Made by a program: the position numbers and the translations under genes. Shown in pieces: positions 37,720-59,098 of a DNA stretch of 64,000 bases. Source of the DNA: Cyclobacteriaceae bacterium (GTDB lineage: Bacteria; Bacteroidota; Bacteroidia; Cytophagales; Cyclobacteriaceae); contig JAHBTY010000001.1 of the NCBI GenBank assembly GCA_019638355.1, forward strand, positions 372,001 through 436,000, written 5' to 3'. Below the pieces are notes generated by a model. That model did no database searches. It was given only the letters and a program-made list of their open reading frames with translations, and was not told the origin of the DNA. The stretch's first letter is position 1; each line of letters starts with the position of its first letter.

Positions 37720-38751
37720 CTATTTTAAATCCTCTCTAACCTTCTTCGCCCCCTTCACCATATTCACCAACTTCTGTCGCGAGGCCCAACGTGCGGTTTG
37801 ACTTAATCCGCAATCGGGCGCCACGGCTAACTTTTCTGCTGGTACGTATTGCAAACATTTTTTTATACGCTGTACCACATCATCTTCCGTTTCGATATAA
37901 TAATTCTTCACATCAATAATGCCCACCGCTACATCCATCTTCTCGGCAAAGGTTGCCAGCAATTCTATTTCAGCAAACTCACGATTTGCCATTTCAATGT
38001 GTACTTCATTCACCGTAAGGTTTAAGAAATCGGGTAACATCGGCTTAAGACTTCTATACCCAACCGGGCGACCTTTAAAATTTCCAAAACATAAATGTGT
38101 AGATAAACGACACTTGCCTACTACTCCTGCAACTGTTCTGTTAAAAATATCTACAAAGCGTTTGGTGTCTTCTTTGTAGGCATAACAACTCATGGACGGT
38201 TCATCTACCGTAATCTCGGTGCAACCCGCAGCCACTAAATCTTCCAACTCCTTTTTAATGAAGGGAAGTAATGCTTCGGTAATGGCAAAGCGATCCTTGT
38301 ATTTTTCATTCGGTAATAATCTGCCGCTTAGTGTGTAGGGGCCAGGCACACTGGTTTTTAACACCGGACCTTTAGGCGCAAGTTTTTGTAAGCGTTTAAA
38401 TTCTTTTACAGCACCCAACCCATTCGGAGCGGTGAGTGCATCTATAATAGAATTTTTTCCTCGTTGGTCGTGCGCAGGCGGGCCGAACTTGCGCAACTCA
38501 TCGGTGTTTTCTTTTATTCCTTTGATGAATCCATAAAACGAAAGGTTAAAATCCAATCGGGTTTGTTCACCATCAGTAATCACATCTAAACCGGCAGCTA
38601 CCTGATCGTGAATCGCTGCAATCACAGCATCTTCAATCAATTCTTCTTTATCGGCATTGCCAAACTCGTTGAGATGTTTAACCGAAAACTCAAGCCATCC
38701 CGGAAACGGATAGCTGCCCACAACTGTGGTGCGAATAGGTAGAGGTTGCAT
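37720..38751 (-). CDS. Core-type cobalamin-independent methionine-synthase-like methyltransferase (MetE C-terminal domain)
   Basis: A 343-residue enzyme matching only the C-terminal catalytic barrel of MetE, not the full 750-residue enzyme. The zinc ligands are in THLCFGN (H219, C221), a Glu near 253 and C314 in PDCGLSQ. Standalone barrels of this kind, known as core MetE, occur in archaea and many bacteria and do not need a folate N-terminal domain; their methyl donor differs among species. It lies 3 bp after the SIS gene stop on the same strand, so both are translated from one message. Whether it makes methionine or acts on another thiol cannot be decided. Confidence 0.88.
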   Translation of the reverse strand: MQPLPIRTTVVGSYPFPGWLEFSVKHLNEFGNADKEELIEDAVIAAIHDQVAAGLDVITDGEQTRLDFNLSFYGFIKGIKENTDELRKFGPPAHDQRGKNSIIDALTAPNGLGAVKEFKRLQKLAPKGPVLKTSVPGPYTLSGRLLPNEKYKDRFAITEALLPFIKKELEDLVAAGCTEITVDEPSMSCYAYKEDTKRFVDIFNRTVAGVVGKCRLSTHLCFGNFKGRPVGYRSLKPMLPDFLNLTVNEVHIEMANREFAEIELLATFAEKMDVAVGIIDVKNYYIETEDDVVQRIKKCLQYVPAEKLAVAPDCGLSQTARWASRQKLVNMVKGAKKVREDLK

Positions 38752-42510: not shown

Positions 42511-43851
42511 TTACTTTAAAATAGTAGTATCCGTTTCCAGGGTTGGCACCACATAATTTCCAATCTCAACTTTTGTGTTGGGAAATACTTGCTGTAAATC
42601 TGCCAAGTCAGTTGCTTTTACTTCGGTTCCATAAATATAGAGTGAATGCAGGTCTTTTAATTCACGCAAGAATTTTATTCCGGTAGCGGTAACTTTTGTT
42701 TGGTTGAGGTTTAAATACTGAAGTTGTTTTAAGGAATTAAGTGTGGTGAGCGCAACATCAGTAATGGCAGTTCGCTCCAGACTAAGCTTGGTGAGTTGTG
42801 TTAATTGCGCGACTTGATTCAGATGGGAATCATCAACCGGAAGGTCGCCTGCTTTTAGCCAGACAAGTTGTTGTTTTAATTTCACCAACAGATCGAAAGA
42901 AGAATCAATAGCTGTAACATTTACAAGATTCACCGAAAGGTAATTACTACCATCTGCTACGGGCAACACAACAGCGCCTAATCGACTTAATGATTGAATA
43001 ATTTTTTGATCGGCTGCATCCGTATTTCCTTCCGGAACTTCTGCCATAGAAGTTGCTTTAGTAGAAATGATTTTTTGTAACGCAGTCAACTGATTGCTTT
43101 CTATAACCGATTTGTTAAAATCAGCACCGGATGAAATCCAGAGTTTTAAAATTTCAATCTCGGTTGGTGTGAGTTGTGCTTTTTCTTTGGGCGGCATGTG
43201 GTCGTCATCGTCAAGTGGCAATAAGGTTCTGTTGATCATTTCGCTTTCATCAACTTTGCCAGCCACCAACACAACACCACCTTTACCACCTTTCAAAATA
43301 TGTTCGGGTGCGTCTAATCGTAGTTTGCCTTTCTGTTTACCAGAACCGTGGCACGCATAACATTTCGAATCCAAAATCGGTTTAACCAGATCATTGTAAA
43401 AGTGTGCTTGTTGTAGATTCACCTGTGCCAGATCAACATCTTCACTATTGTCTTCAAATAAAAATCCCTCACCGTGGGTAAGTGTTCCACCCAGATGACC
43501 GGTAGCAATAATTAAAACCAACATCAACACCGATAAAAATTTATAGATGCGTTTGAATTGTTTTTGTCCACGTGCCCACGCATATACACCCGTAATCAGC
43601 GTAAGCGCGATGCCGGCAAACTGGTGCAGCTTAACAGATTGCCATTCATAGTCGCTATTCTCTTTAAGCAAGAGGCCGCTCACCATTGAAGTAAGTGCTG
43701 CAAAAAATCCTAACCATAAAATAATCCGGATCGATCGCCTGAGTGATTTGTAGGGTTTGCGAAAAGGCAGCCATTCAAATAATACTACCAGCAACAAAAT
43801 GCCGATGGGTAAATGAACAAGTAACGGATGTAGGCGACCGATGAACTCCAT
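42511..43851 (-). CDS. DUF2231 membrane domain fused to planctomycete-type cytochrome c and leucine-rich repeats
   Basis: A 446-residue protein. Four hydrophobic segments (about 8-30, 42-62, 75-93, 105-121) form a DUF2231-like membrane part with conserved His residues. A PSCyt1-type heme domain follows (C164-x-x-C167-H168, then a late HMPP at 218-221 as likely axial Met). The C-terminus (about 320-430) contains LRR-type strands (LTKLSLERTAI, LQYLNLNQTKV, LHSLYIYGTEV). It is the fourth gene of the DUF1501/PSD1 set and probably accepts electrons from it at the membrane. The three-part layout is known in Bacteroidota but not characterised as far as I know. Confidence 0.85.
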   Translation of the reverse strand: MEFIGRLHPLLVHLPIGILLLVVLFEWLPFRKPYKSLRRSIRIILWLGFFAALTSMVSGLLLKENSDYEWQSVKLHQFAGIALTLITGVYAWARGQKQFKRIYKFLSVLMLVLIIATGHLGGTLTHGEGFLFEDNSEDVDLAQVNLQQAHFYNDLVKPILDSKCYACHGSGKQKGKLRLDAPEHILKGGKGGVVLVAGKVDESEMINRTLLPLDDDDHMPPKEKAQLTPTEIEILKLWISSGADFNKSVIESNQLTALQKIISTKATSMAEVPEGNTDAADQKIIQSLSRLGAVVLPVADGSNYLSVNLVNVTAIDSSFDLLVKLKQQLVWLKAGDLPVDDSHLNQVAQLTQLTKLSLERTAITDVALTTLNSLKQLQYLNLNQTKVTATGIKFLRELKDLHSLYIYGTEVKATDLADLQQVFPNTKVEIGNYVVPTLETDTTILK

Positions 43852-43858
43852 TTTAATA

Positions 43859-44776
43859 TTATGAATAACGCTTTCGCAAAACTTCCATCATATGTACATT
43901 AATTGCCCATTGATCGGCAACCGGTTGGCGGGTGTAGGGCAAAGCCGGCATGTAATCTACCGGACCAAACTCTGTTAAGAATGTTATTTGTTTGCCTGCT
44001 TGCTTTTTTGATTCAACAATTTTATCCCACCACGCAAAGTGTGTTTTAACCGCATAGTCCCATTCAGGAGCGCGCGGATCATTTACCTGTGGACCTTCGG
44101 GGTGGCCAATGCGCGCATGAATATGATCGGTACGATTGAGTGCAAGATTGATAGTCTCGGCCTGATCTTCCAGGTATGATTCATGCACATTGCACCAATG
44201 TGAGATATCGAGTGTTAACCGCAAGCTGGGCACACGTTTGATTAACTCCTCCGTAACCGGTGCCGAGTACAGGCCCCTTCCGCGATGGGTTTCGTGATAG
44301 ATGGGAACTCCGCTTTGCGCAGAAACGGTAATCGAATGTTTAATCAGTTTTTCTTTCTGATCGGCCGTAAAGTAATCTTTGCCGCTGTGGCAGTTGATAT
44401 AAGCCGGTTTGGCGGTAGCCGCATCTGATAAGAATTGATTGAACTGGGCTTCATGCTTTGCAAAATCTTTTTCGCCACTGCCATAGAGAAACCCGATCTT
44501 AAGATTGTGTTTGGCTAACGCATCAAATAACTTCTTGCGTTCTGTTGCATCACCTGGCCACCAGATTTCGCAACCATCGTAACCGGCAGCTTTTGCCTTC
44601 GCACAAAATTCATTGTACGAACCGTTGAAACCCCAGTTGGTTGCAAAGATCAGCAGTGAGTAACCCGCTTGTGTTGAATGCGTAAGTGGATTTGCAAAAC
44701 TCTCCAACGTATTCATCATTAATCCGGTACTGGCCAATGCTGTTGTTCTCATAAAAATTCTTCTATTAATTTTCAT
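43859..44776 (-). CDS. Tat-exported sugar phosphate isomerase/epimerase-like TIM-barrel protein
   Basis: A 305-residue protein of the xylose-isomerase-like / AP endonuclease 2 TIM-barrel family. The N-terminus has a twin-arginine signal (INRRIFMRTTALA). Recognisable barrel elements are DGCEIWWPGD, PAYINCHSG, VPIYHETHRGRG, LTLDISHWCNVH and FLTEFGPVDYM, which place the likely metal ligands. The start codon overlaps the stop of the DUF1501 gene by one base (TGATG), so the two are coupled. Placement in the DUF1501/PSD1 set suggests epimerisation or isomerisation of a sugar in the periplasm. Confidence 0.85.
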   Translation of the reverse strand: MKINRRIFMRTTALASTGLMMNTLESFANPLTHSTQAGYSLLIFATNWGFNGSYNEFCAKAKAAGYDGCEIWWPGDATERKKLFDALAKHNLKIGFLYGSGEKDFAKHEAQFNQFLSDAATAKPAYINCHSGKDYFTADQKEKLIKHSITVSAQSGVPIYHETHRGRGLYSAPVTEELIKRVPSLRLTLDISHWCNVHESYLEDQAETINLALNRTDHIHARIGHPEGPQVNDPRAPEWDYAVKTHFAWWDKIVESKKQAGKQITFLTEFGPVDYMPALPYTRQPVADQWAINVHMMEVLRKRYS

Positions 44777-46266
44777 CACCCAAGTATTTCGTGAATTACT
44801 TTTCCATGGACATCTGTTAAGCGGAACGGGCGACCTTGAAATTCGTAGGTAAGTTTTTCATGATCGAAACCTAACTGATGCAAGATGGTAGCCTGCAAAT
44901 CGAACGGAGTTGTTTTGCCGTTGATGGCCGAGTAACCGATCTCATCTGTTTCGCCATAGGTGAATCCTTTTTTGATTCCACCACCCGCCATCCAAATGGT
45001 AAAAGCTTCGGTGTGATGGTCGCGCCCTTTAAATGGATTTTTTTTGCCTTCGCGATTTTCAGCCATGGGCGTGCGACCAAACTCACCACCCCACACTACT
45101 AATGTTTCATCTAACAAGCCGCGTTGTTTCAAATCCAATACCAACGCTGTCATGGCTTTATCAACCGTGCGGCATTTGTTTACAAAGCCCACATCAATCG
45201 CAAGATTAGAATCGGTACCATGGCTATCCCAACCCCAATCAAAAATCTGTACGAAGCGCACACCTTTCTCTACCAGCTTTCGCGCAAGCAGAATGTTGTT
45301 GGCCAGACTTACTTTACCTGGTTTGGTGCCGTACATTTCATGAATGTACTTCGGTTCATCATTGATGTTCATTACTTCGGGCACAGAGATCTGCATGCGG
45401 TATGCCATTTCATATTGCGCTATGCGCGATAGAATTTCCGGATCGCCTTTTTCTACGTAATGAATTTTATTCACTTCGTTAATAGCATCGATGGATGCTT
45501 TGCGCAGAGGGCGGGTAATGTGTTCCGGATCTTTGATGAATAGAACAGGATCACCTTCACTGCGGCATTGTACACCCTGATAAACCGAGGGAAGAAATCC
45601 ACTGCCCCACACACTTTTGCCGGCATCGGGATTGGTGCCACCCGAAGTAAGCACTACAAAGCCCGGTAAGTTTTGATTTTCACTTCCCAAACCATACGTT
45701 ACCCAGGAGCCCATACTCGGTCGGCCTAAACGTGCACTTCCGGTATGCATTAATAGTTGTGCCGGGCCATGATTAAACTGATCGGTTTGCATGGCCTTGA
45801 GAAAAGTAACTTCATCTACGATGGAAGAAAAGTGGGGCAGGTTTTCCGATACCCATGCTCCACTTTGTCCGTATTGTTTAAAGCTTGCCTGCGGCCCCAA
45901 CATTTTTGGTACACCACGAATGAAGGCAAACTTTTTTCCTTCCAGCAACGACTGCGGGCAATCTTGGCCATCGAGTTTGTGTAGCGCAGGTTTGTAATCG
46001 AACAACTCTAACTGCGAAGGCGCACCGGCCATGTGTAAATAAATTACAGACTTGGCTTTGGGAATAAACTGTGGTGCTTTGGGTGCAAGTGGGTTAGTTG
46101 AAAACAAGGCCGCGTATTTGTCTTGCTTCTCGTACGGATTACAACTACCAAATACAGATGCAAGCGCAAGTCCGCCCATGCCTGCAATACATTCGCGCAG
46201 GAAATGTCGCCTCGTAGTTTCTTCGAGTTGCTTACGCTGAAGTTCTTGGATAATTTTTTCGTTCAT
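44776..46266 (-). CDS. DUF1501 family Tat-exported protein (sulfatase-like fold)
   Basis: A 496-residue protein. The N-terminus has ETTRRHFLRECIAGMGG, a twin-arginine motif at residues 19-20, and a lipobox-like Cys at about 42 (FGSCNP), so it may be an exported lipoprotein. The DUF1501 family shares the alkaline-phosphatase-like fold with sulfatases and is always near PSD1 proteins in Planctomycetes. Motifs seen include GAPSQLELFDYKP, WDSHGTDSNLAI, GEFGRTPM and GRDHHTEAFT, whose His/Asp residues probably bind metals. The exact reaction is unknown. It forms an operon with the TIM barrel and the DUF2231 gene downstream. Confidence 0.88.
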   Translation of the reverse strand: MNEKIIQELQRKQLEETTRRHFLRECIAGMGGLALASVFGSCNPYEKQDKYAALFSTNPLAPKAPQFIPKAKSVIYLHMAGAPSQLELFDYKPALHKLDGQDCPQSLLEGKKFAFIRGVPKMLGPQASFKQYGQSGAWVSENLPHFSSIVDEVTFLKAMQTDQFNHGPAQLLMHTGSARLGRPSMGSWVTYGLGSENQNLPGFVVLTSGGTNPDAGKSVWGSGFLPSVYQGVQCRSEGDPVLFIKDPEHITRPLRKASIDAINEVNKIHYVEKGDPEILSRIAQYEMAYRMQISVPEVMNINDEPKYIHEMYGTKPGKVSLANNILLARKLVEKGVRFVQIFDWGWDSHGTDSNLAIDVGFVNKCRTVDKAMTALVLDLKQRGLLDETLVVWGGEFGRTPMAENREGKKNPFKGRDHHTEAFTIWMAGGGIKKGFTYGETDEIGYSAINGKTTPFDLQATILHQLGFDHEKLTYEFQGRPFRLTDVHGKVIHEILG

Positions 46267-46273
46267 GGTTAGT

Positions 46274-46295
46274 AGGTCTGTGTGGACACAGACCT
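46274..46295. repeat. Perfect 10-bp hairpin AGGTCTGTGT / ACACAGACCT
   Basis: The arms 46274-46283 and 46286-46295 are exact inverted copies with a GG centre. First of three hairpins built on a TGTGTCC-like core in the 275-bp gap between the DUF1501 and PSD1 genes. Confidence 0.75.
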
Positions 46296-46329
46296 TGTGT
46301 TATTTAATTTTTTATCTCTTCCTGTTCTC

Positions 46330-46360
46330 ATGGTTTGTGTCCTGTGTCCTCACAAACCAT
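46330..46360. repeat. Perfect 10-bp hairpin ATGGTTTGTG / CACAAACCAT
   Basis: Arms 46330-46339 and 46351-46360 with an 11-base loop containing a duplicated TGTCC. Its arms are identical to those of the hairpin at 46506-46529. Confidence 0.8.
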
Positions 46361-46368
46361 CTTGTTTT

Positions 46369-46401
46369 GCCTCACCCAAATCCCGATCCGCAGAGAGGGA
46401 C
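46369..46401 (-). repeat. REP-like element, reverse-strand copy ending GGGTGAGGC
   Basis: On the reverse strand, GTCCCTCTCT ... GGGTGAGGC has the same two conserved ends as the copy in the lipoprotein gene at 27522-27552. It is a degenerate copy. Confidence 0.45.
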
Positions 46402-46505
46402 TTGAGTTCGGAGTAGATTATTCAAATACAACGAAATCAATTTCTTTTAAAACTACTTAGCGATCTTTGCGTCTCTGCGGTTTAATCTATCAAATTCCCT
46501 ATTTC

Positions 46506-46529
46506 ATGGTTTGTGTCCTCACAAACCAT
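46506..46529. repeat. Perfect 10-bp hairpin, second copy ATGGTTTGTG / CACAAACCAT
   Basis: Arms 46506-46515 and 46520-46529 around TCCT. It lies directly after the PSD1 stop (46542, reverse strand), so it can serve as that gene's transcription end. Confidence 0.8.
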
Positions 46530-46541
46530 TCTCTACATAAT

Positions 46542-49226
46542 TCAATTTTTTGTTACCACTTCATCCAGATTAAGAATGGCGGCTGCTACTAAACTCAATG
46601 CCTTTAATTGTGGTTCCTCTTCTTTCTTATTTCGAACCTTCATCATCGTTCCGCCCTGATATTCTTTTATTCCTTCTGCATACAATTTTTCAAATGCTGC
46701 CAATTTTCGTTCGGTAATCTTCTGGCCGGTTGCCAGTTCATACGCTAATCCAATCTGTTCCTTTACGGATGATTGGGTTTGCATTTTCAATGCGAGGTGA
46801 TGTGCCGCTTCTACATACACCGAATCATTCAACGTTACCAAAGCCTGCAAAGGGGTGTTGGTGCGAATACGTCTTGCGGTGCACACTTCGCGCGAAGCAC
46901 CATCAAACGTAAGCATCGATGGATAAGGAGCGGTGCGTTTTAAATAAGTATATAATGATCTGCGATGTTTATCCTCGCCTTCACTCATCTTCCAATCTTG
47001 TCCGTTCCAGGGCGATTTCCAAATGCCAGCCGGTTGATAGGGCATTACACTGGGTCCATACATTTTAGTACTCAACAATCCACTTACCGCCAACGCCTGA
47101 TCGCGTAGCTGTTCGGCTGATAAGCGTACGCGTGGTGCACGTGCATATAATTTATTGAGTGGGTCTTTCTCCAATAATTCTTCATTTACATCTGAGCTTT
47201 GTTGATACGTGGCAGACAATACGATTTCACGCATTAGTTTTTTTAAACTCCAGTTGTAATCGTGTACTAACTTCCATGCCAGGTGATCTAATAATTCCGG
47301 ATGAGTTGGCGGGATGCCTTGTGTGCCGAGATCTTCCACGGTTTCGGCTAACCCAATTCCAAATAATTGTTCCCACACACGATTAACAATTGTACGTGCT
47401 GTCAAGGGATGATTCGGGTCTGTTATCCACTGAGCGAGTCCTAATCTGTTTGCGGGTGCATCTTTAGGAAATGGATTAAGTGTATGCGGAACTGCGGCTT
47501 CAACCACTTCACCTTTTACCAACCAATTGCCACGTTCAAAAACATGCGTGGGGCGTTTCATCTTAGCAGGATTATCAAACATGATGGGCGTGGTGGGTAG
47601 TTCTTTACGAACCAGTTCCCAAAATGTTTTACGCTTGTCAGGATAGTTACGATCCCAATCATCCGTAAAATAAAACCAGTCGAAGATCATACCACTGTCG
47701 TCTGCATTTTTCAGGTTGGGACTGCTGTATGTAAAGTATAAATTGTGTGTTCCATCAACTGGAGTAAATTCGAAATCTACTATCTGCCATTTGTTTGAAG
47801 TGTTTTTTACAGCAATGGATTTGAGTAGCGGACCAGTAACGCTATCCAGATGAATATTCCAAACTCCGCCATTTACCCAACTGGAATTACGATAAATAAG
47901 CCGGTTGTTGCCAGTAAGATCTACATTGGGCAAACGGCATTGCGCGTTATTACGAAAGATGAGCCATTTGGTATCGGTAAGTTCGCTGTTAATAAACTGA
48001 TCGGCTTGGATAGAGTTGATACTGGGCTGCCAGGTTTTAGCAAAGCGATAAACTTCTTGAGCTTTTTCAGTTGAGATGTTTTTGTTGACCCAGTTGGTAA
48101 GCGCAGTAAGTTTTTCGGTGTCTTCTTTTTCAAAATGGCGCAGCAAAGGATATTCGGCTTCGGTATCTTCATCGCGCGTGTTGTTAAAGAAAGCCATGAA
48201 CTTATAATACTCCTCGTGCGTAAATGGATCGTACGGGTGACTATGGCATTGCACGCAAGCAAATGTTGTTCCCATCAACGCTTCCCACGTTGTGTTAACA
48301 CGATCCAACACGGCCGCAGTTCGAAACTCTTCGTTATCGGTACCACCTTCATCGTTGGTCATGGTGTTGCGATGAAAGGCCGTAGCGATGTATTGTTCAT
48401 CGGTTGGATTATCGAGTAAATCGCCTGCTAACTGTTCGGTGATAAACTGATTGTAAGGCATATCAGCATTAAGTGCGTTAATCACCCAATCGCGGTAACG
48501 CCAGATGGCGCGACTATCATCCCGTTCGTAGCCTTTGGTATCGGCATAGCGGGCAAGGTCTAACCACATGCTGGTCCAGCGTTCGCCATACTGGTTGGAA
48601 GCCAAAAGTTCATCAACTAATTCTTCAAAAGCTTTCGGATCATTAGAATTCAAAAATCGTTTTGTGATTGGTTCGGGAGCGGGAATGCCAATTAAATCGA
48701 GGCTTACCCTGCGCAGCAAGGTAGCTTTATCAGCTGCAGCGGAAGGTTGTAAATTATGTTCATTCAGTTTTTGAAGAATGAAAGCATCGACATCGTTCAT
48801 TGCCCAACTCGTTTTTTCAGGAACGGTTTGTTCTTTGACCGCTACGTAAGCCCAATGATCGCCCCACGCTGCGCCTTCTTCAATCCATTGCGTAAGAATG
48901 TTTATTTCATCCTGTGTAAGCGGGTCTTTTTTGTAAGGCATGCGCTCTTGTGGATCGGTTGCCGTAATGCGTTTTACTAATTCGCTGTGGGCGGCATCAC
49001 CAGGTATAATCGCATACTTGCCCGACTCGGCTTTTGCCAATGCTTCCTGCCGAAACAGCAAACTGAATTCAGCCTCGCGCTTTACACCACCGTGGCATGC
49101 AATACATTTTTTATTGAGGATGGGTTTTACCTGGGTGTTGTAGTCAATCTTTGATTCAGGAAAAAAATACCACACCAGAGCTACTGTAATCACAATTAGT
49201 AGTATCAGGTAATAAGTTTTCCGCAT
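46542..49226 (-). CDS. PSCyt1-DUF1549-DUF1553 planctomycete-type cytochrome c protein (PSD1 family)
   Basis: An 894-residue exported protein with a signal anchor (about 5-22). A PSCyt1 heme domain comes first (C41-x-x-C44-H45). A DUF1549 domain follows (about 145-350, WALNDVDAFIL region to FACVQCHSHPYDPF with a second CxxCH), then a jelly-roll-like stretch (about 400-540) and a DUF1553 domain (about 605-870, RLGLAQWITDPNHPLTARTIVNRVW and ASREVCTARRIRTNTPLQAL). These proteins always travel with DUF1501 genes, as here. They are thought to be extracytoplasmic oxidoreductases used in polysaccharide breakdown, but the substrate is not established. Confidence 0.9.
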   Translation of the reverse strand: MRKTYYLILLIVITVALVWYFFPESKIDYNTQVKPILNKKCIACHGGVKREAEFSLLFRQEALAKAESGKYAIIPGDAAHSELVKRITATDPQERMPYKKDPLTQDEINILTQWIEEGAAWGDHWAYVAVKEQTVPEKTSWAMNDVDAFILQKLNEHNLQPSAAADKATLLRRVSLDLIGIPAPEPITKRFLNSNDPKAFEELVDELLASNQYGERWTSMWLDLARYADTKGYERDDSRAIWRYRDWVINALNADMPYNQFITEQLAGDLLDNPTDEQYIATAFHRNTMTNDEGGTDNEEFRTAAVLDRVNTTWEALMGTTFACVQCHSHPYDPFTHEEYYKFMAFFNNTRDEDTEAEYPLLRHFEKEDTEKLTALTNWVNKNISTEKAQEVYRFAKTWQPSINSIQADQFINSELTDTKWLIFRNNAQCRLPNVDLTGNNRLIYRNSSWVNGGVWNIHLDSVTGPLLKSIAVKNTSNKWQIVDFEFTPVDGTHNLYFTYSSPNLKNADDSGMIFDWFYFTDDWDRNYPDKRKTFWELVRKELPTTPIMFDNPAKMKRPTHVFERGNWLVKGEVVEAAVPHTLNPFPKDAPANRLGLAQWITDPNHPLTARTIVNRVWEQLFGIGLAETVEDLGTQGIPPTHPELLDHLAWKLVHDYNWSLKKLMREIVLSATYQQSSDVNEELLEKDPLNKLYARAPRVRLSAEQLRDQALAVSGLLSTKMYGPSVMPYQPAGIWKSPWNGQDWKMSEGEDKHRRSLYTYLKRTAPYPSMLTFDGASREVCTARRIRTNTPLQALVTLNDSVYVEAAHHLALKMQTQSSVKEQIGLAYELATGQKITERKLAAFEKLYAEGIKEYQGGTMMKVRNKKEEEPQLKALSLVAAAILNLDEVVTKN

Positions 49227-49405: not shown

Positions 49406-50851
49406 TCACTTCGCTTGCGAGGCAATCAGAATTTTTTCCCGCTGTGTGATGGAATTGTTTGCTCTGCCTGAAACAACTTTGCGGCAATTGGGATGGCCAC
49501 ACGTACACACAAAAGATGGGATGGTGTCGTCCAACAAGTCGGCATAATCTAAGGTAAGTTCTTCTTCGGCCTCTATATCGCGCAAAGCAATTAAGTTAAG
49601 GCCATGGTAACTGGTGTTGGGTGCACAACAATGATTTTGTGGTGCCCAGTTTTCAGGTTTATGATCCCATAAAATATAAACCTCATCGGAGATGGGGTAG
49701 GCATAATGCCTAAACTCTTCGCGCTGTTGCGGTGTCCAGTTTTGTTCAACGTACCGTTTGGTAACAAGCCGTTGTGCGGCTTCTTCAAACTTAAAAATAG
49801 TTTCACCTTTGCGGATGAGCTTTTGCGCCACAATACCATAACCGTTTATGGAGTTACCTTTAACCCGATACTTTTTCTGTTTGGCCGCATAGCGGGCTTT
49901 GCCTTCTTCAATAATGTGTTTTAGGAATCCAGCCTTACCAATCGGATCAAATTGCAGAATGTAATCGGCTGAGCCTTCGTATCCATCTTCGTAAAATACC
50001 GAACAGGTAAAGTTTATTTCCAGAAAATAGATTTCCTGTTTTTCATTTACCCGAAAATCCAACCGCGCATAACCCACGCCTGAAAAGCCGGTAAAGATTT
50101 TTTCGGCAGCCAGCCTCAGGCGTGCTTCCAATTCAGCATCGGCACAAGGTTTATTTACATCGGTATGCAACTCTGATGTTTTGAGCGCATAGGTTTTAAA
50201 AGCATAGCCTTTCGGAAATTTGTATTCAACCGGCTTAAAGGCAACAGCACCATACTTCGGTTGAATGTTGGCTGCTACCAATACGGTAAACTCCTGTCCG
50301 GCTATGTATTCTTCAATCAATATTTCGTCATACCCTTCGGTTAACAAACTTTCTACTTTAAGTTTTAGATGCGGAAGATCCCGGACAAGCGATTCATCGT
50401 CCACACCTAAGCTATCACCCGCTTTGGCGGGTTTTACAAATAGTGGAAATTTTAAATGACTTACTTTAGCTTCCAGGTTGTGGCTTCCTGTAACTTCTGC
50501 ATAAAGTGGTGTGGAAACACCGGCACAATAGGCCACATACTTCATTAATGATTTGGGTGGATCATATAAAACAGCATTAGGCCCGGTATAGGGCAGGTTC
50601 AATGCATCCATTGAGTTAATTACATCAATAGATGGTACCGACCAATCCAAATAACCTTCGCATAGGTTTACATAAATATCGTACTTCTGCTTACGCAGCT
50701 CTTTCAGTTGTTTGTAGGTAGTAAGCTTATTCAGAAACACATGATCTACCTGATCATTGGGCAACAGTGGCGCCAGGTTGCGGGGTGGATCATAATTTTT
50801 ATAATCCACTTCGGTGGTGCTGTAATCCGGTTGTAAAACACAAACTTTCAT
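49406..50851 (-). CDS. ATP-grasp ligase fused to a SET-domain methyltransferase
   Basis: A 481-residue cytosolic fusion. Residues 1-315 are a D-Ala-D-Ala-ligase-like ATP-grasp: a pre-ATP-grasp domain with YVNLCEGYLD, K140 (FVKPA), E180/E181 (ILIEEY) and the metal motif FLEIN (E278, N280) followed by FTC. Residues 328-462 are a SET domain with INGYGIVA, NHCCAPN (406-412), ELTLDY (Tyr436) and post-SET cysteines C449, C451 and C456. Both active sites look intact. The protein should join an amino acid or peptide to a carboxylate with ATP, and methylate a lysine or amine with S-adenosylmethionine. It follows the second ATP-grasp gene by 80 bp. Confidence 0.87.
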   Translation of the reverse strand: MKVCVLQPDYSTTEVDYKNYDPPRNLAPLLPNDQVDHVFLNKLTTYKQLKELRKQKYDIYVNLCEGYLDWSVPSIDVINSMDALNLPYTGPNAVLYDPPKSLMKYVAYCAGVSTPLYAEVTGSHNLEAKVSHLKFPLFVKPAKAGDSLGVDDESLVRDLPHLKLKVESLLTEGYDEILIEEYIAGQEFTVLVAANIQPKYGAVAFKPVEYKFPKGYAFKTYALKTSELHTDVNKPCADAELEARLRLAAEKIFTGFSGVGYARLDFRVNEKQEIYFLEINFTCSVFYEDGYEGSADYILQFDPIGKAGFLKHIIEEGKARYAAKQKKYRVKGNSINGYGIVAQKLIRKGETIFKFEEAAQRLVTKRYVEQNWTPQQREEFRHYAYPISDEVYILWDHKPENWAPQNHCCAPNTSYHGLNLIALRDIEAEEELTLDYADLLDDTIPSFVCTCGHPNCRKVVSGRANNSITQREKILIASQAK

Positions 50852-50931: not shown

Positions 50932-52023
50932 TTAGCTGGAAACGGAACTGCGCAGCAGCGCATCGTCCAGTACTTCTACAATCAGGTTGGTGAAGGTTTT
51001 ATTGCTTACGCGTAAAATAGCGCCTATGGAGGTATAGTTTTCGTCTTCGCTTAAGCCGCACTGGGCATTAATTTCCAATACAAACAGTTTACCGGTTTTC
51101 TTATCCATTCTAAAATCCAACCGCGCATACCCAACTCCTTTTACGGCCTTGAAGGCATCAATGCTTAACGCTCTTAACTGTTGGGCCAGATCAGGACAGG
51201 TAACAGGTGCATATTCATATAAAAACCCGTTGTCGGGTGGGGGGGTTTCTTCATCATAAGCTTCCCATAAGCGCTCGAACGAAAGAAACTGTTCTTTTTC
51301 GGGTAAGCCTTTATGAAATACGCGTTCAATAGGCTGGTAGAAACGAATTTGCTCGGGCTTATGATGCGAACCAACCAATAGCGTAGTAAACTCACGCCCG
51401 ATTATAAACTGCTCGGCCAATAAACCGGCTGTATTTAAATCCCAACCTTTAAAGCCTTCGTGTAGTTCGTTGAGTACGCTCTTAAGCTGGCGTTTGCCGT
51501 TAACTACATTCTTTACACTTATACCCATACTGCCGGCCGATACAGCGGGTTTAACTATAATGGGTTTACCAACTTTCTTGAAAAGATCCGGATCGATGTG
51601 TCCGTTTAGCTTTTGCCAGCCTGGCATAGAAACCCCGGCCTTATCAAAAGCTTCTTTCATGGTAATTTTAGAGGTAGTTACATTATAGAAGTATGAATCG
51701 GAACCGGTATAGGTGATTCCGCTTTCATCCAATGCATGTATTACCGATACTCCGGGTACATTATTGATTTCGTCACCATCGCACAGATTGAGTACAATGC
51801 TTTGTTTTTGGGTGTACCGCTTAACACGATCGATGGATTCTGCAATATTATGTACCGTAACGTTTACCCACTCCCATTCGCAATTGATTTCAGCGAACAC
51901 ACGAGTGTATTCTTCAATGCTTTGGGTATAGTCGTAGTAAAATTTTAGAGTAGGGTCTTCCGTCTCCAGATAAGGAGCAAATATCCAGATTTTATAGGCG
52001 GCTGTATTGTTGAGTAACGTCAT
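50932..52023 (-). CDS. D-Ala-D-Ala-ligase-like ATP-grasp protein
   Basis: A 363-residue ATP-grasp ligase related to the fused one next door. It shares VLNLCDGDE (compare YVNLCEGYLD in the neighbour), K158 in IIVKPAVSAGSMG, E204 in LLAEQFIIGREFT, D303 in RLDFRM and the metal motif VLEINAQCG (E317, N319). Both proteins have a Cys three residues after the Asn, which is not seen in housekeeping Ddl. It should form an amide bond between an acyl phosphate and an amine. As the first gene of the pair, it is preceded by an AT-rich region with repeated operator-like motifs. Cell-wall Ddl proper is excluded by the pairing with SET and by these deviations. Confidence 0.85.
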   Translation of the reverse strand: MTLLNNTAAYKIWIFAPYLETEDPTLKFYYDYTQSIEEYTRVFAEINCEWEWVNVTVHNIAESIDRVKRYTQKQSIVLNLCDGDEINNVPGVSVIHALDESGITYTGSDSYFYNVTTSKITMKEAFDKAGVSMPGWQKLNGHIDPDLFKKVGKPIIVKPAVSAGSMGISVKNVVNGKRQLKSVLNELHEGFKGWDLNTAGLLAEQFIIGREFTTLLVGSHHKPEQIRFYQPIERVFHKGLPEKEQFLSFERLWEAYDEETPPPDNGFLYEYAPVTCPDLAQQLRALSIDAFKAVKGVGYARLDFRMDKKTGKLFVLEINAQCGLSEDENYTSIGAILRVSNKTFTNLIVEVLDDALLRSSVSS

Positions 52024-52081: not shown

Positions 52082-52126
52082 CAATAAATATTATTATTAA
52101 AGTAAAGTACTTGTCAATATTTATTG
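52082..52126. repeat. 11-bp perfect inverted repeat CAATAAATATT / AATATTTATTG
   Basis: Arms 52082-52092 and 52116-52126, separated by 23 bases that include the second AGTAAAGTACT copy. It is the most AT-rich stretch of the neighbourhood and lies between the GH127 stop (52170) and the ATP-grasp start (52023). It may be an operator, a nucleoid-protein site or the GH127 transcription end. Confidence 0.55.
52101..52111. promoter_or_regulatory. Operator-like motif AGTAAAGTACT, copy 2
   Basis: Exact repeat of the 52048-52058 motif, lying within the loop of the 52082-52126 inverted repeat. Confidence 0.45.
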
Positions 52127-54506: not shown

Positions 54507-54652
54507 GGTTTAAAATTTAAGATGTTGGAAGGTACTAAAATTGGTGAAGTGGCCAGGTAGAGTTCGGTATAAGACGAGGGATCATTTTTGTTGAGCGGTT
54601 AGGGTACCAAAAACGCACACCGTAACTTTCATTTTCTAATTCCAACTTGATT

Positions 54653-56221
54653 ATGAAATCGGCACGTGTATTATTCCTGACAATAGTTGTTTTGCTGGCC
54701 TGTGAACAACCTCGGCAAAAAACAAAACCCAACCATCAATACCTGGAAGAAATAACTATACCGCAGTTGCAGGTGGGTTATCAGAAAAGCACGTTTACCA
54801 TTGAACAGGTAGTAAAAGATTACCTGCAGCGCATTGAAGATTTAGATAAAAACGGGCCTGCACTTAACTCTATTATTTATATAAATCCCAGGGCAGTAGA
54901 AATAGCCCGAACGCTGGATGCCGAACTGCAAGCCGGTAAAAGCCGGGGGTTATTACACGGCATTCCGGTTATTATTAAAGATAACCTGAATACAGCCGAT
55001 ATGCCCACTACGGCCGGGGCAACGGTATTGCGCGATTCCTATCCCCCTGATGATAGCTTTTTGGTAAAGAAACTGCGCGATGCCGGGGCCGTAATTATTG
55101 CGAAAGCAAACTTAAGCGAGTGGGCCAACTTTCGGGCCGATATGAGTAGTAGCGGTTGGAGCGGTATGTTGGGGCAAACCAAAAATCCCTATGTGTTAGA
55201 CCGCAACCCATGTGGTTCCAGTTCCGGTTCGGGTGTGGCAGCTGCGGCAAATTTATGCGCCATTGCTATCGGTACCGAAACCAATGGTTCGATTGTGTGC
55301 CCATCCAACGCCAATGGGTTGGTAGGATTAAAGCCCACCGTTGGGTTGTTGAGTCGTAGCGGAATTATTCCCATTTCGTTTACACAAGACACAGCCGGCC
55401 CCATGGGGCGCACCGTTACCGATGTGGCAATAACGTTAGGTGCCTTAGTGGGTGTAGATTCACTAGATGAAAAAACATTGGCATCAGCCGGTAAGTATAA
55501 AAGCAACTATACATCGCACCTAAAAGCCGATGGTTTAAAAGGCAAGCGCATTGGGTGGCTGAAAAATGTAAGCGGCTACCATGCAGCAGTGGATACACTT
55601 ATGAAAAAAGCTGTTGCGGATATTCGCACACAAGGAGCAGAGGTGGTGGAGATAGATTTTACTATGGAACGCGGTACGGGAGGTAATTCATTTACTGTAC
55701 TGTTGTATGAGTTTAAAGACGGACTTATAAAGTATTTCGCCAGCCTGGGCGATAAAGCCCGCGTACACAACCTGGCTGAGTTGATGGAGTTCAATAAAAA
55801 AGATACTATTGAGTTAAAATACTTCGATCAACAGTTATTAAAACTGGCACACGAGAAGGGCACGCTGCAAGACAAAGAATACCTGGATGCCTTAGCGAAC
55901 ATGCAAAAAGCCACCCGCGAAAATGGTATCGATAAATTATTAAAGGAAAATAACCTGCATGCGTTAATGGCGCCCACCGGTGCACCTGCGTGGAAAACGG
56001 ATTTGATTGATGGTGATCATTTTCTTGGGGGCAGCTCTTCGCTGGCCGCAATTTCAGGTTATCCTTCCATTACCGTGCCCATGGGTTTTGCCGATGTATT
56101 ACCGGTTGGGGTTTCATTCTTTAGTACCGCCTGGCAAGAGGCGATCTTGATTGAAATTGCCTACGGTTACGAACAAGCCACCAAACATCGGAAGGCACCA
56201 ACGTTTATTGTGAGTAAGTAA
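54653..56221 (+). CDS. Amidase-signature family lipoprotein
   Basis: A 522-residue amidase. The ATG at 54653 gives MKSARVLFLTIVVLLACEQP with a lipobox Cys, so the protein is anchored in the cell envelope; the longer frame starts with TTG. The Ser-cisSer-Lys triad of the amidase-signature family is visible as the Lys in IPVIIKDNLNT (about residue 106) and the serines in NPCGSSSGSGVAAA (about 186-199), with ETNGSIVCP following. Substrates may be peptide amides or fatty acid amides; GatA is excluded by the lipid anchor and by the lack of gatB/C. Divergent from GH127. Confidence 0.9.
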   Translation: MKSARVLFLTIVVLLACEQPRQKTKPNHQYLEEITIPQLQVGYQKSTFTIEQVVKDYLQRIEDLDKNGPALNSIIYINPRAVEIARTLDAELQAGKSRGLLHGIPVIIKDNLNTADMPTTAGATVLRDSYPPDDSFLVKKLRDAGAVIIAKANLSEWANFRADMSSSGWSGMLGQTKNPYVLDRNPCGSSSGSGVAAAANLCAIAIGTETNGSIVCPSNANGLVGLKPTVGLLSRSGIIPISFTQDTAGPMGRTVTDVAITLGALVGVDSLDEKTLASAGKYKSNYTSHLKADGLKGKRIGWLKNVSGYHAAVDTLMKKAVADIRTQGAEVVEIDFTMERGTGGNSFTVLLYEFKDGLIKYFASLGDKARVHNLAELMEFNKKDTIELKYFDQQLLKLAHEKGTLQDKEYLDALANMQKATRENGIDKLLKENNLHALMAPTGAPAWKTDLIDGDHFLGGSSSLAAISGYPSITVPMGFADVLPVGVSFFSTAWQEAILIEIAYGYEQATKHRKAPTFIVSK

Positions 56222-56518: not shown

Positions 56519-56618
56519 TTATTAGTAGTTAGTTCATAGTCCTTAGTCTTGAGTATTTAGTAGTTGCAATCTGAACAACCACACTAAAGACTATCTACTC
56601 ATGACTAACTACTATTAA
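56518..56618. repeat. Long imperfect inverted repeat between convergent genes
   Basis: GTTATTAGTAGTTAGTTCAT (about 56518-56537) and ATGACTAACTACTATTAAC (about 56600-56618) are near-complementary arms around an inner second pairing of TAGTCTT-type repeats. They fill the 96-bp gap between two convergent genes and can stop transcription from both sides. Simple TAGTAG-type repetition lowers certainty. Confidence 0.55.
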
Positions 56619-59098
56619 CGTCTAATCAACACCCCCGGATAATTCGTTACTGGTTTCTGATCAGCGTACACCAGTTTACCATTTACCCAAACGGATTCAA
56701 TGCCGGTAGATAAGGCAGTTGGATTTTCGATGGTAGCATGATCAATCACTGTTTCCGGATTGAATAAAACAAGGTCAGCAAAATAACCCGGTGCAATTAA
56801 CCCTCGGTTTTTGAGGCCCACATTTTCAGCCGCCAGGCTGGTCATTTTTTGAATGGCCGTTTCCAATGGCATTAATTTTTGTTCGCGCACATAGCGACCC
56901 AATACTCGCGTAAACGATCCATGTCCGCGCGGATGCCCGCGCATAGTACCATCCGAACAAATGCTGGTATAAGGCCACTTCATAAAATTACTAATGTCGG
57001 TTTCGCTCATACTCTTCGCCACAATGGTGGCGCTTTGTTCCGGGGCTGCGCTTTCGCGGATGATGCGAAGTAGTGTTTGCGCTGAACTTTCTTTGTTGAT
57101 TGCAGCAATTTCACTTACAGTTTTCCCTTGCCAGGCCGGTTGTGGTGAGTAACGCACCATTACCGAAGCTGCCGGATCGAACAACTCGCGTGTAGCAAAC
57201 TCAGCACTTGCCAGGTTTTCAAAATCTTTTTTAGGGAAGAGTACGCGCGGTGTGGAGTTCCACATCGTGTAGGGGTAAATATCGGCTGTGATGTTGATGC
57301 CTTGTTGCCGCGCCATTTCCAATTGACGCAGTATTTTTTCGGAGTTACCCCACTTGCTGCGCATGGCAATTTTAATGTGTGTAATCTGCACGGGTATTTT
57401 CGCTTCGTAGCCGATGTGAATGATTTCATCAATGGCATCTTCCAAATCCACATCTTCGCTGCGCAGGTGGCTGATGTAGCGGCCTCTACTTTCAGCCGCA
57501 ACTTTGGCCAGTGCCACCACTTCATCGCGCGAGCTGTAAAATCCTGCTTCATACTCAAGTCCGGTGCTCAACCCCAATGAGCCTTTCTCCATTTCACGCT
57601 TTAGCAATACTTTCATTGAATCAATCTCCAAAGCTGTTGCTTTGCGCAATAAATTTTTGCCCATCACTTTTTTCCGCAAGGAAGCGTGCCCTGTAAAGGA
57701 AGCCACATTTACACTTACTGGAATTTTCTTGATGGCTTGCTGAATAGAATCCATGGAATCAGATCCTCCATCTTGCCCCACTACAATCGTAGTTATACCC
57801 TGACTGGTTACGGCAACGGCCGCTGGATTTTTTTCAAGTCCACCATCGTGGTGGCTATGGTTATCGATAAATCCAGGTGCAAGTATGTTGCCCTTGCCAT
57901 CGGTAATGCTTTCGCCATTAAAAGTTGTAAGTGCGCCCACCTGCCAGATGCGGTTGTTCAGCACACGCACACTTCCGGCAAAAGCCGGAAGCCCGGTGCC
58001 ATCAATAATTTTTACATTGGTGATCAGGTGTGTTTTCGGAAGTGTAATAGGTTTTCCTTCCCAAATGTTTTTTACTACTGCATGAGCACGAAAGTTGGAA
58101 GAGTTATCCAATACAATTATGGTTTGGTTTTTATCGAGGTAGCGTGTAATCTCCGTGCCAAAGCCAACCCAGCCTCCGGTATGCGAAACAATTTTTCCAG
58201 ACTCACGAATAAACCACCCGAAACCATATTCCGTGTTTTTGCCATTGTTAAGTTTGCCTGGGGTAATGGCTTCGGCAAACGTAGTTTTCTTCACCAGTTT
58301 ATCGGTGTAAAGGGCTTGATCCCACACATATAAATCTTCTACAGATGCATACACGTTACCATCGCCCACAATGCCATCGAAGCGAACCAGATCGTTCAGG
58401 TTGTAGTTAGCTCCGTCATAGTCCAATCCAAATACGCGCGAAGATGGAGATGTTTTTATTTTCAAATGATACACATACGTGTTTTTCAATTTAAGCGGAC
58501 TTGCAATGTGTTTGGCAAAAAACTGATCGGCTGAATGCCCCGAAACTTTTTCGATGATGGAAGCGAGTGTGGTATAGTTGGTATTGCTGTATTGCCACTG
58601 CGTACCGGGTTCAAACACAAGCGGTGTTTTTTTAAGCGCCAACAACTCCAGCATGGATTGATTGGTGAGGGTATCCAACGGATTCATATCGCCTTGTGCG
58701 ATGTCGAAATATTCAGCCAGACCAGAGGTTTGATTCATCAACTGGCGAATGGTGATGTTACTATATGGAAAAGCGGGCAGGTGCTTTTGCACAGCATCGT
58801 CATAATTCAGTTTGCCTTGTTCTTTCAACTGCATCGTCATCATGGTATAAAACTGCTTGCTTACCGAGGCCAGGTTAAAAGCCGAAGCGGTAGTAAGCGG
58901 TTGCTGCGTTTGCGGATGAGTAATGCCAAACGCTTTTTTATAAAGTACTTTTCCTTTCTCGCCAATCAATACCGTGCCATTGAACAAATGGTATTGATGC
59001 AGGTAAGTAAGCACCGAATCGATGCGGGTTATTTTTGATTGATGCTGGCTGTTGGCAAACACCGGAAGCAAAACGAGAAAAAGTAAAATGCGTTTCAT
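56615..59098 (-). CDS. Serine beta-lactamase-like / D-aminoacylase amidohydrolase fusion
   Basis: An 827-residue exported protein (signal peptide MKRILLFLVLLPVFANS). Residues 20-350 are a class C beta-lactamase-like serine hydrolase with S78-x-x-K81 (SVSK), Y170-S-N172 (YSN) and HTG at about 306-308. Residues 365-827 are an amidohydrolase of the N-acyl-D-amino-acid deacylase type, with the metal ligands in DNHSHHD (H414, H416), VQITHIK, and SDG near GTMRGHPRGHGSF. The GNCG cysteine of the classical D-aminoacylases is GQDG here. Two hydrolases on one chain suggest successive cuts of D-amino-acid peptides such as cell-wall fragments. Confidence 0.88.
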   Translation of the reverse strand: MKRILLFLVLLPVFANSQHQSKITRIDSVLTYLHQYHLFNGTVLIGEKGKVLYKKAFGITHPQTQQPLTTASAFNLASVSKQFYTMMTMQLKEQGKLNYDDAVQKHLPAFPYSNITIRQLMNQTSGLAEYFDIAQGDMNPLDTLTNQSMLELLALKKTPLVFEPGTQWQYSNTNYTTLASIIEKVSGHSADQFFAKHIASPLKLKNTYVYHLKIKTSPSSRVFGLDYDGANYNLNDLVRFDGIVGDGNVYASVEDLYVWDQALYTDKLVKKTTFAEAITPGKLNNGKNTEYGFGWFIRESGKIVSHTGGWVGFGTEITRYLDKNQTIIVLDNSSNFRAHAVVKNIWEGKPITLPKTHLITNVKIIDGTGLPAFAGSVRVLNNRIWQVGALTTFNGESITDGKGNILAPGFIDNHSHHDGGLEKNPAAVAVTSQGITTIVVGQDGGSDSMDSIQQAIKKIPVSVNVASFTGHASLRKKVMGKNLLRKATALEIDSMKVLLKREMEKGSLGLSTGLEYEAGFYSSRDEVVALAKVAAESRGRYISHLRSEDVDLEDAIDEIIHIGYEAKIPVQITHIKIAMRSKWGNSEKILRQLEMARQQGINITADIYPYTMWNSTPRVLFPKKDFENLASAEFATRELFDPAASVMVRYSPQPAWQGKTVSEIAAINKESSAQTLLRIIRESAAPEQSATIVAKSMSETDISNFMKWPYTSICSDGTMRGHPRGHGSFTRVLGRYVREQKLMPLETAIQKMTSLAAENVGLKNRGLIAPGYFADLVLFNPETVIDHATIENPTALSTGIESVWVNGKLVYADQKPVTNYPGVLIRR

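What the first reader, a model, noticed from the sequence alone, without database searches (positions are those of the whole stretch)
49406..50851. ATP-grasp peptide-ligase domain fused to a complete SET methyltransferase domain
One chain carries a D-Ala-D-Ala-ligase-type ATP-grasp (K140, E180/E181, E278/N280) and a SET domain with intact NHxxxPN, Tyr436 and three post-SET cysteines. SET domains methylate lysine amines; ATP-grasp ligases make amide bonds. Together they could build and N-methylate a short peptide or tag a protein. The SET domain keeps all its catalytic marks, so a decayed relic is unlikely. Seen: both motif sets. Known: family functions. Inferred: the joint role.
Basis: partly seen in the sequence, partly recalled or inferred. 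Interest (0 to 1): 0.75.

Follow-up and report, generated by a model that had tools for sequence, protein, structure and literature searches.

The report
SET methyltransferase fused to ATP-grasp ligase
A bacterial gene joins an amino-acid-linking enzyme to a methyl-adding enzyme best known from histone biology, and it usually travels with a second linker and a second methyl-adder, which suggests an undescribed pathway for a small methylated peptide.

Summary
One intact minus-strand ORF (49406-50851, 481 aa) carries a D-Ala-D-Ala-ligase-like ATP-grasp (about 1-325) and a SET domain (about 326-470), both with their catalytic residues. It is no artefact: a species-genome scan returned 35 loci that encode it, 17 of 395 genomes across the phylum hold it, and both domains are under strong purifying selection. 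It is not the cell-wall ligase: the genome has a proper Ddl elsewhere, and both substrate-site motifs differ. It works in a set. A second ATP-grasp (LigA, 50932-52023) lies upstream in 31 of 35 loci and a small stand-alone SET protein (SetA) is linked in 16 of 35. SetA and the fusion co-occur (15 of 17 fusion genomes, 1 of 378 others) even when unlinked, as in this genome. SetA's nearest solved relative by sequence and fold is BurB, which methylates free methionine, not histones. Some lineages link a transporter; this genome does not show one. Best reading: a small-molecule pathway (SET methylation plus ATP-grasp amide bonds) making a short methylated peptide or solute. Substrates are unknown; protein tagging is the main rival. 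Interest 0.62.

The parts
49406..50851 (-). LigB:SET, the 481-aa ATP-grasp/SET fusion
   Evidence: single ORF; Pfam; full-length relatives
49877..50851 (-). ATP-grasp part, residues about 1-325, Ddl-like fold
   Evidence: Pfam; model well predicted here; the 50 Foldseek matches listed are Ddl or Van-type ligases
49442..49876 (-). SET part, residues about 326-470, with three post-SET cysteines
   Evidence: Pfam SET 337-436; nearest PDB sequence BurB; model confidence low in 340-410
49616..49636 (-). SET motif NHCCAPN, residues 406-412
   Evidence: N406 51/52, H407 and C409 52/52, N412 48/52
49544..49546 (-). SET tyrosine Y436
   Evidence: 52/52
50932..52023 (-). LigA, second ATP-grasp ligase, 363 aa, 80 bp upstream of the fusion
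   Evidence: Pfam Dala_Dala_lig_C 51 bits; same-strand upstream neighbour in 31 of 35 loci
52088..52117 (-). weak promoter-like site before LigA (TTGACA-16-AATAAT)
   Evidence: consensus match only; number of such sites in the region is at chance level, 8 against 7.6

Best explanation
The protein is a bifunctional enzyme of a small-molecule pathway. SetA, a BurB-like stand-alone SET enzyme, methylates a free amino acid (a methionine sulfur or an amine). LigA and the ATP-grasp half of the fusion each activate a carboxylate as acyl phosphate and couple it to an amine, giving a di- or tripeptide-like product. The fused SET domain adds a methyl group to substrate or product in the same chain. Where a transporter is linked, the short methylated product is probably moved across the membrane. 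Shown: gene content, conserved active-site residues, Ddl-like fold of the ligase half, co-occurrence of SetA and fusion, BurB as nearest solved relative. Inferred: free substrates, order of steps, methylated atom, transport, role.
For: LigA upstream on the same strand in 31 of 35 loci, gap under 100 bp in 28 of these. SetA linked in 16 of 35; SetA in 15 of 17 fusion genomes against 1 of 378 others; within the genus 10 both, 0 fusion only, 1 SetA only, 14 neither, and the exception G006 has SetA and the start of LigA at a contig end. SetA nearest to BurB by profile (4e-17 against 5e-9 for the next) and by fold (3e-9 against 3.8e-6). Ligase catalytic residues kept, both Ddl substrate-site motifs replaced, own Ddl elsewhere. 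Membrane protein of ABC type beside the cassette in 7 of 35 loci (6 same strand) and in L098, L101; a full ABC transporter in the distant subfamily (2 ORFs tested). Precedent: Ngg both acetylates glutamine and joins it to a second glutamine (PMC8070244, passages).
Against: No substrate or product is known. The window's own genome has no match to the transporter family PF13748 (0 of 1), and 28 of 35 loci show no such neighbour, so export is not general. BurB likeness is family-level; SetA and the fused SET are separate groups, and one BurB-shared residue (Thr) is Ser in the distant SetA. G247, G376, G515, G511 and G505 have the fusion without SetA and 15 of 15 distant genomes checked lack LigA. 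The SET half of the model is of low confidence, so the pocket was not examined. The co-occurrence counts ignore kinship (nine of the genomes are one genus).
Confidence: 0.5

Rival explanations
1. Protein modification: the ATP-grasp part attaches an amino acid or short peptide to a protein, and the SET part methylates the added group or a nearby lysine.
For: Classical SET enzymes act on protein lysines and some ATP-grasp enzymes (TTL, RimK; recalled) modify proteins. After BurB the next PDB relatives of both SETs are histone methyltransferases. TTLL12 joins a SET-like and a TTL (ATP-grasp) domain in eukaryotes (PMC3520985, passages).
Against: Ligase half is Ddl-like by sequence and fold, not RimK- or TTL-like. 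No conserved small target protein was seen beside the cassette among ORFs of 70 aa or more in 35 loci; shorter ORFs were not examined. TTLL12 lacks critical residues and was inactive in vitro.
Confidence: 0.22
2. The fused SET domain is a binding or regulatory module (for example a SAM sensor) and only the ligase is catalytic.
For: A SET-less ligase relative exists (G508, L149). A few distant members vary N406 (1 of 52) or N412 (4 of 52).
Against: H407, C409, Y436 and three cysteines are 52/52 and the SET part is as constrained as the ligase part.
Confidence: 0.1
3. A compatible solute is made: a methylated dipeptide kept inside the cell for osmotic or stress protection, as N-acetylglutaminylglutamine amide is in other bacteria. 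This is a version of the best explanation without export.
For: Ngg precedent (PMC8070244, passages); BurB leads to the solute DMSP (PMC12542666); no PF13748 transporter in the window's genome.
Against: Transporters linked in other lineages; no stress genes were looked for systematically.
Confidence: 0.15
4. A variant cell-wall D-Ala-D-Ala or D-Ala-D-Lac ligase.
For: Fold and Pfam family.
Against: 76.3 bits on TIGR01205 with cut-off 245.65; the genome's own Ddl scores 325.1; HGTDGEDG and EINTIPG motifs replaced.
Confidence: 0.03

Closest known systems
BurB (SET-domain methionine S-methyltransferase, PDB 9l4t, 9l4v; PMC12542666)
   Same: Nearest solved relative of SetA and of the fused SET by sequence and of SetA by fold; small bacterial SET with post-SET cysteines; works in a metabolite pathway.
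   Different: BurB is stand-alone and not joined to a ligase; methionine as substrate is untested here; BurB's partner enzymes were not searched for here.
Ngg, bifunctional N-acetylglutaminylglutamine synthetase (PMC8070244, passages)
   Same: One protein modifies an amino acid and joins it to another by an amide bond.
   Different: The modifying part acetylates (GNAT); here it is a SET domain. That the ligase part of Ngg is ATP-grasp is recalled, not seen.
TTLL12 (PMC3520985, passages)
   Same: SET-like plus ATP-grasp-type (TTL) domain in one chain.
   Different: Order reversed (SET-like first), TTL not Ddl type, critical residues missing, inactive in vitro; eukaryotic.
D-Ala-D-Ala ligase (Ddl)
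   Same: Fold and ATP-site residues of the ligase half and of LigA.
   Different: Far below family cut-offs and without the two substrate-site motifs.
Predicted operons with one or two ATP-grasp peptide ligases and amino-acid-modifying enzymes (PMC2922099, passages)
   Same: Idea of ATP-grasp ligases plus modifying enzymes making small peptides.
   Different: In the passages seen the modifying enzymes are cupin/oxygenase and other methylases; no SET domain is mentioned there.

Membership tests
D-Ala-D-Ala ligase | Curated family cut-off | tested here: not met
   TIGR01205 76.3 bits against 245.65; control, the genome's own Ddl: 325.1, and 394.8 against 262 on NF002528
D-Ala-D-Ala ligase | HGxxGEDG and ExNTxPG motifs (signatures recalled) | tested here: not met
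   NLCEGYLDW and EINFTCS in the fusion, HGTDGEDG and EINTIPG in the own Ddl
D-Ala-D-Ala ligase | Makes D-Ala-D-Ala | not testable with these tools
   needs an assay
ATP-grasp carboxylate-amine ligase | Fold and ATP/Mg residues | tested here: met
   Foldseek best E 1.1e-17; K140, E180, R263, D265, N280 52/52, E278 51/52
SET domain | Pfam cut-off and NHxxxxN/Tyr | tested here: met
   42.1 bits, cut-off 22.4; residues
SET domain | SAM-dependent methyl transfer | not testable with these tools
   needs an assay
BurB-like methionine S-methyltransferase (for SetA) | Nearest solved relative by sequence and by fold | tested here: met
BurB-like methionine S-methyltransferase (for SetA) | Methionine pocket | tested here: inconclusive
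   BurB Thr73, Gln75, His81, Pro85 align with residues invariant in 16 of 16 linked SetA (chain numbering taken to equal the paper's), but the paper says the amino acid is held by main chain, and the distant SetA has Ser for Thr
BurB-like methionine S-methyltransferase (for SetA) | Partner enzymes BurI, BurD, BurE | not tested
   no search made
TTLL12 | SET-like first, TTL second, critical residues missing | tested here: not met
   order reversed, residues kept
Ngg-type synthetase | GNAT domain | tested here: not met
   no GNAT family at E up to 0.01 in the fusion
Known or candidate anti-phage defence protein | Match to a PADLOC model | tested here: not met
   0 families for fusion, LigA and SetA at E up to 0.01

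The most novel reading that the evidence does not exclude
A new class of ribosome-independent small peptides in Bacteroidota, made by a SET/ATP-grasp assembly set (SetA, LigA, LigB:SET), in which SET domains act as small-molecule methyltransferases and the product carries a sulfonium or methylated-ammonium group. The fusion would be the first active enzyme known to join SET methylation and peptide-bond formation in one chain.
Probability: 0.4. Interest if true: 0.8.

Novelty: new variant of a known kind. Interest (0 to 1): 0.62.

Why it matters
SET domains are generally treated as protein lysine methyltransferases; BurB showed that one acts on a free amino acid. A conserved set that pairs two SET proteins with two ATP-grasp ligases would make small-molecule chemistry a recurring role of bacterial SET domains. 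It would also expose short modified peptides that searches built around large peptide-synthetase genes would probably overlook (inference). It is directly testable: three proteins, known cofactors, mass spectrometry.

Tried and rejected
Frameshift or misassembly joining two genes: rejected. Decayed SET: rejected. Cell-wall Ddl or Van ligase: rejected. Phage or defence gene: no PHROGs match for fusion and LigA, no PADLOC match. Plasmid-borne fusion: of 3 plasmid records with any match, 0 cover 80% of the query; the distant fusion gave 42 records, 0 at 80%. The amidase gene 54647-56221 as a pathway member: its relatives lie near 10 of 35 loci but on the opposite strand, and all in near relatives of the window (fusion 75-96% identical), so I read it as synteny. 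Bacteroidetes-type promoter motif (recalled consensus): 6 in the window against 3.7 expected, none by the cassette. Sigma-70-like sites: chance level.

Literature, ten searches., which needed all terms, returned 0 papers. In some searches I saw the listed papers only (20 of 40, 20 of 58, 15 of 77); no listed title or abstract start describes a bacterial SET/ATP-grasp fusion or operon. This covers open-licence PMC papers only; reviews of bacterial SET domains in subscription journals may mention such links (recalled possibility, not seen).

Limits. Other phyla were not sampled: one genome-contig scan found close relatives only, the genome search stayed in this phylum, so absence elsewhere is not claimed. 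One of the 35 loci (L039) is titled Williamsia; I take it as a mis-binned contig but did not test that.

Full report
What is there. The gene is one minus-strand ORF, 49406-50851, of 481 aa. Pfam finds a D-Ala-D-Ala-ligase C-terminal ATP-grasp at 125-280 and a SET domain at 337-436, both over their cut-offs. The AlphaFold2 model (33 rows, mean pLDDT 83.1, pTM 0.78) is good for about residues 1-330 and weak in part of the SET domain (block means 48-64 over much of 341-410). The 50 Foldseek matches listed, of 1588, are D-Ala-D-Ala ligases or Van-type relatives, best E 1.1e-17. The C-terminal 168 residues alone are nearest to BurB in the PDB (E 1.1e-9), then to MLL1 and ASH1L (about 1e-5).

It is real. 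Of 39 genomes searched (own included), 10 hold the full-length fusion at 63-100% identity, each with a second ATP-grasp next to it. The species-genome scan returned 35 loci at 56-96% identity, which overlap with the genomes. Of 395 genomes sampled over the phylum, 17 hold it full length: 6 at E below 1e-240 and 11 between 1e-129 and 1e-134. The eight of these 11 that I compared by BLAST are 36-38% identical to the query. In 52 rows (51 distinct) K140, E180, E187, R263, D265, N280, H407, C409, Y436, C449, C451 and C456 are invariant; E278 and N406 are 51/52, N412 48/52, E181 47/52. dN/dS in five pairs is 0.031-0.069 for the ligase part and 0.032-0.071 for the SET part; dS is above 1.5 in the three more distant pairs.

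It is not a cell-wall ligase. The fusion scores 76.3 bits on TIGR01205 (cut-off 245.65). A separate gene of the same genome (L150 479-1576) scores 325.1 there and 394.8 on NF002528 (cut-off 262). Aligned with that Ddl, the motif HGTDGEDG reads NLCEGYLDW in the fusion and NLCDGDEIN in LigA, and EINTIPG reads EINFTCS and EINAQCG. The ATP-site residues are kept and the substrate site is rebuilt.

It belongs to a set. In the 35 loci, LigA, a second ATP-grasp, lies upstream on the same strand in 31; the gap is under 100 bp in 28 of these and a 4-bp overlap in 8. Of the four others, L034 is cut by its contig, L051 has a LigA fragment beside the fusion, L055 has LigA with SetA on another contig of the same genome (G248), and L056 has no LigA in the stretch. 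A stand-alone SET protein of about 165 aa (SetA) is linked in 16 of 35: within 53 bp of LigA in 13, at 1.7-2.0 kb in 3. A six-TM protein of ABC type lies directly downstream on the same strand in 6 of 35 and on the other strand in 1; two of the seven were run through Pfam and are PF13748. L098 and L101 show one too. The window's own genome has no PF13748 match.

SetA and the fusion go together even when unlinked. SetA (E at most 1e-15) is in 16 of 395 phylum genomes, 15 of them among the 17 fusion genomes (Fisher p about 4e-24, which ignores kinship). Nine of the 15 are one genus, so the count by genus is fairer: 7 both, 2 fusion only, 1 SetA only, 160 neither. In the window's genus: 10 both, 0 fusion only, 1 SetA only, 14 neither. 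The one exception, G006, has SetA and the first 97 profile positions of LigA at a contig end, so its fusion is probably cut off by the assembly. The other SetA-only genome, G295, has a weaker match (8.6e-29) that is 33% identical to SetA. In the window's genome SetA is on contig C4, 59859-60314, among genes that also flank SetA in G008, G018 and G020 and, on one side, G009. In G024 SetA is hit as two pieces.

SetA looks like BurB. By profile its best PDB match is BurB at 4e-17, next MLL1 at 5e-9. Its model (pLDDT 88.7) matches BurB best by Foldseek (3.0e-9, TM 0.67-0.71), next a Set2 chain at 3.8e-6. BurB S-methylates free methionine and was not active on two related compounds (PMC12542666: abstract, introduction, results part 1 and mechanism section read). 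BurB Thr73, Gln75, His81 and Pro85 align with SetA residues invariant in 16 of 16; in the distant SetA the Thr is Ser. SetA and the fused SET form separate groups by BLAST score.

Distant subfamily. In nine genomes of one genus SetA lies beside the fusion in 9 of 9 by coordinates. A further short SET ORF (about 118-120 aa where fetched) lies beyond a large ORF in 8 of 9; the ninth contig (G182) ends at the fusion. The large ORF is a full ABC transporter in the two that I ran through Pfam. LigA orthologues (E at most 7e-149) are in 6 of 6 near-type fusion genomes checked and in 0 of 15 distant ones, whose only match is the fusion (or, in G508, the SET-less ligase) itself. G247, G376, G515, G511 and G505 have the fusion without SetA, and G508 has the ligase alone, ending at the domain border. 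In two orders, 1 of 116 and 5 of 114 genomes match, the 5 including G508. The constant unit is thus the ligase:SET; SetA, LigA and transporters join it in different lineages. In G247 the fusion lies near an N-formylglutamate amidohydrolase, a MATCAP peptidase and a glutathione-synthetase-like ATP-grasp.

How it most likely works. Established for ATP-grasp ligases: ATP phosphorylates a carboxylate and an amine attacks, giving an amide. Established for SET: methyl transfer from SAM. I infer that SetA methylates a free amino acid, that LigA and LigB form one or two amide bonds, that the fused SET methylates substrate or product, and that a transporter moves the product where one is linked. Ngg is a precedent for one protein that modifies an amino acid and joins it to another (PMC8070244, passages). 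A plasmid relative of the distant ligase part sits with diaminopropionate and diaminobutyrate genes (Thioflavicoccus). A plasmid SET gene related to SetA sits beside a polyketide synthase, a TauD dioxygenase and an aminotransferase (Eleftheria). Both fit small-molecule chemistry but are distant; other plasmid hits that I opened (Sinorhizobium, Streptomyces) show no SET/ATP-grasp pairing.

What stays open. Substrates, methylated atom, order of steps, transport and role. Protein tagging remains possible (0.22). Other phyla were not sampled. The literature searches named under Tried and rejected found no description of a bacterial SET/ATP-grasp fusion in what they listed; the eukaryotic TTLL12 is the only SET-plus-ATP-grasp protein met, with the order reversed and no activity in vitro (PMC3520985, passages).

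Noticed in passing
window 56615-59098 (-): 827-aa ORF with a beta-lactamase-type domain (33-335) followed by amidohydrolase matches (up to 811): another two-enzyme chain.
   Followed up: no
window 42511-49226 (-): Planctomycete-type genes downstream of the cassette: PSCyt1/PSCyt2/PSD1 (46542-49226), DUF1501 (44776-46266), a TIM-barrel protein (43859-44779) and PSCyt1/DUF2231 (42511-43851); relatives of the first three lie near 4-5 of 35 fusion loci.
   Followed up: partly
window 54647-56221 (+): Amidase whose relatives lie upstream, on the opposite strand, in 10 of 35 fusion loci; read as synteny.
   Followed up: partly
window 37723-38751 (-): Cobalamin-independent methionine synthase-like protein of 343 aa.
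   Followed up: no
L139:7817-8815 (own genome, contig C6): Two further small SET genes lie tail to tail in the same genome; the Pfam search found five SET places in the genome in all.
   Followed up: no
L149:7124-8182: SET-less relative of the fusion (352 aa, G508), ending at the domain border; not tested whether it is a natural split or a truncation.
   Followed up: partly
L091:4041-12099: Distant fusion near a glutathione-synthetase-like ATP-grasp, a MATCAP peptidase, an N-formylglutamate amidohydrolase and a gamma-glutamyltranspeptidase.
   Followed up: partly
L131:5782-12240: Eleftheria terrae plasmid: SET gene beside polyketide synthase, TauD dioxygenase, aminotransferase and aldehyde dehydrogenase genes.
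   Followed up: partly
L128:2467-7948: Thioflavicoccus plasmid: ATP-grasp ligase with diaminopropionate and diaminobutyrate genes and a KamA-type radical SAM gene.
   Followed up: partly
G024:C1:739458-739807: SetA hit as two pieces in different frames: a possible frameshift or sequence error.
   Followed up: no
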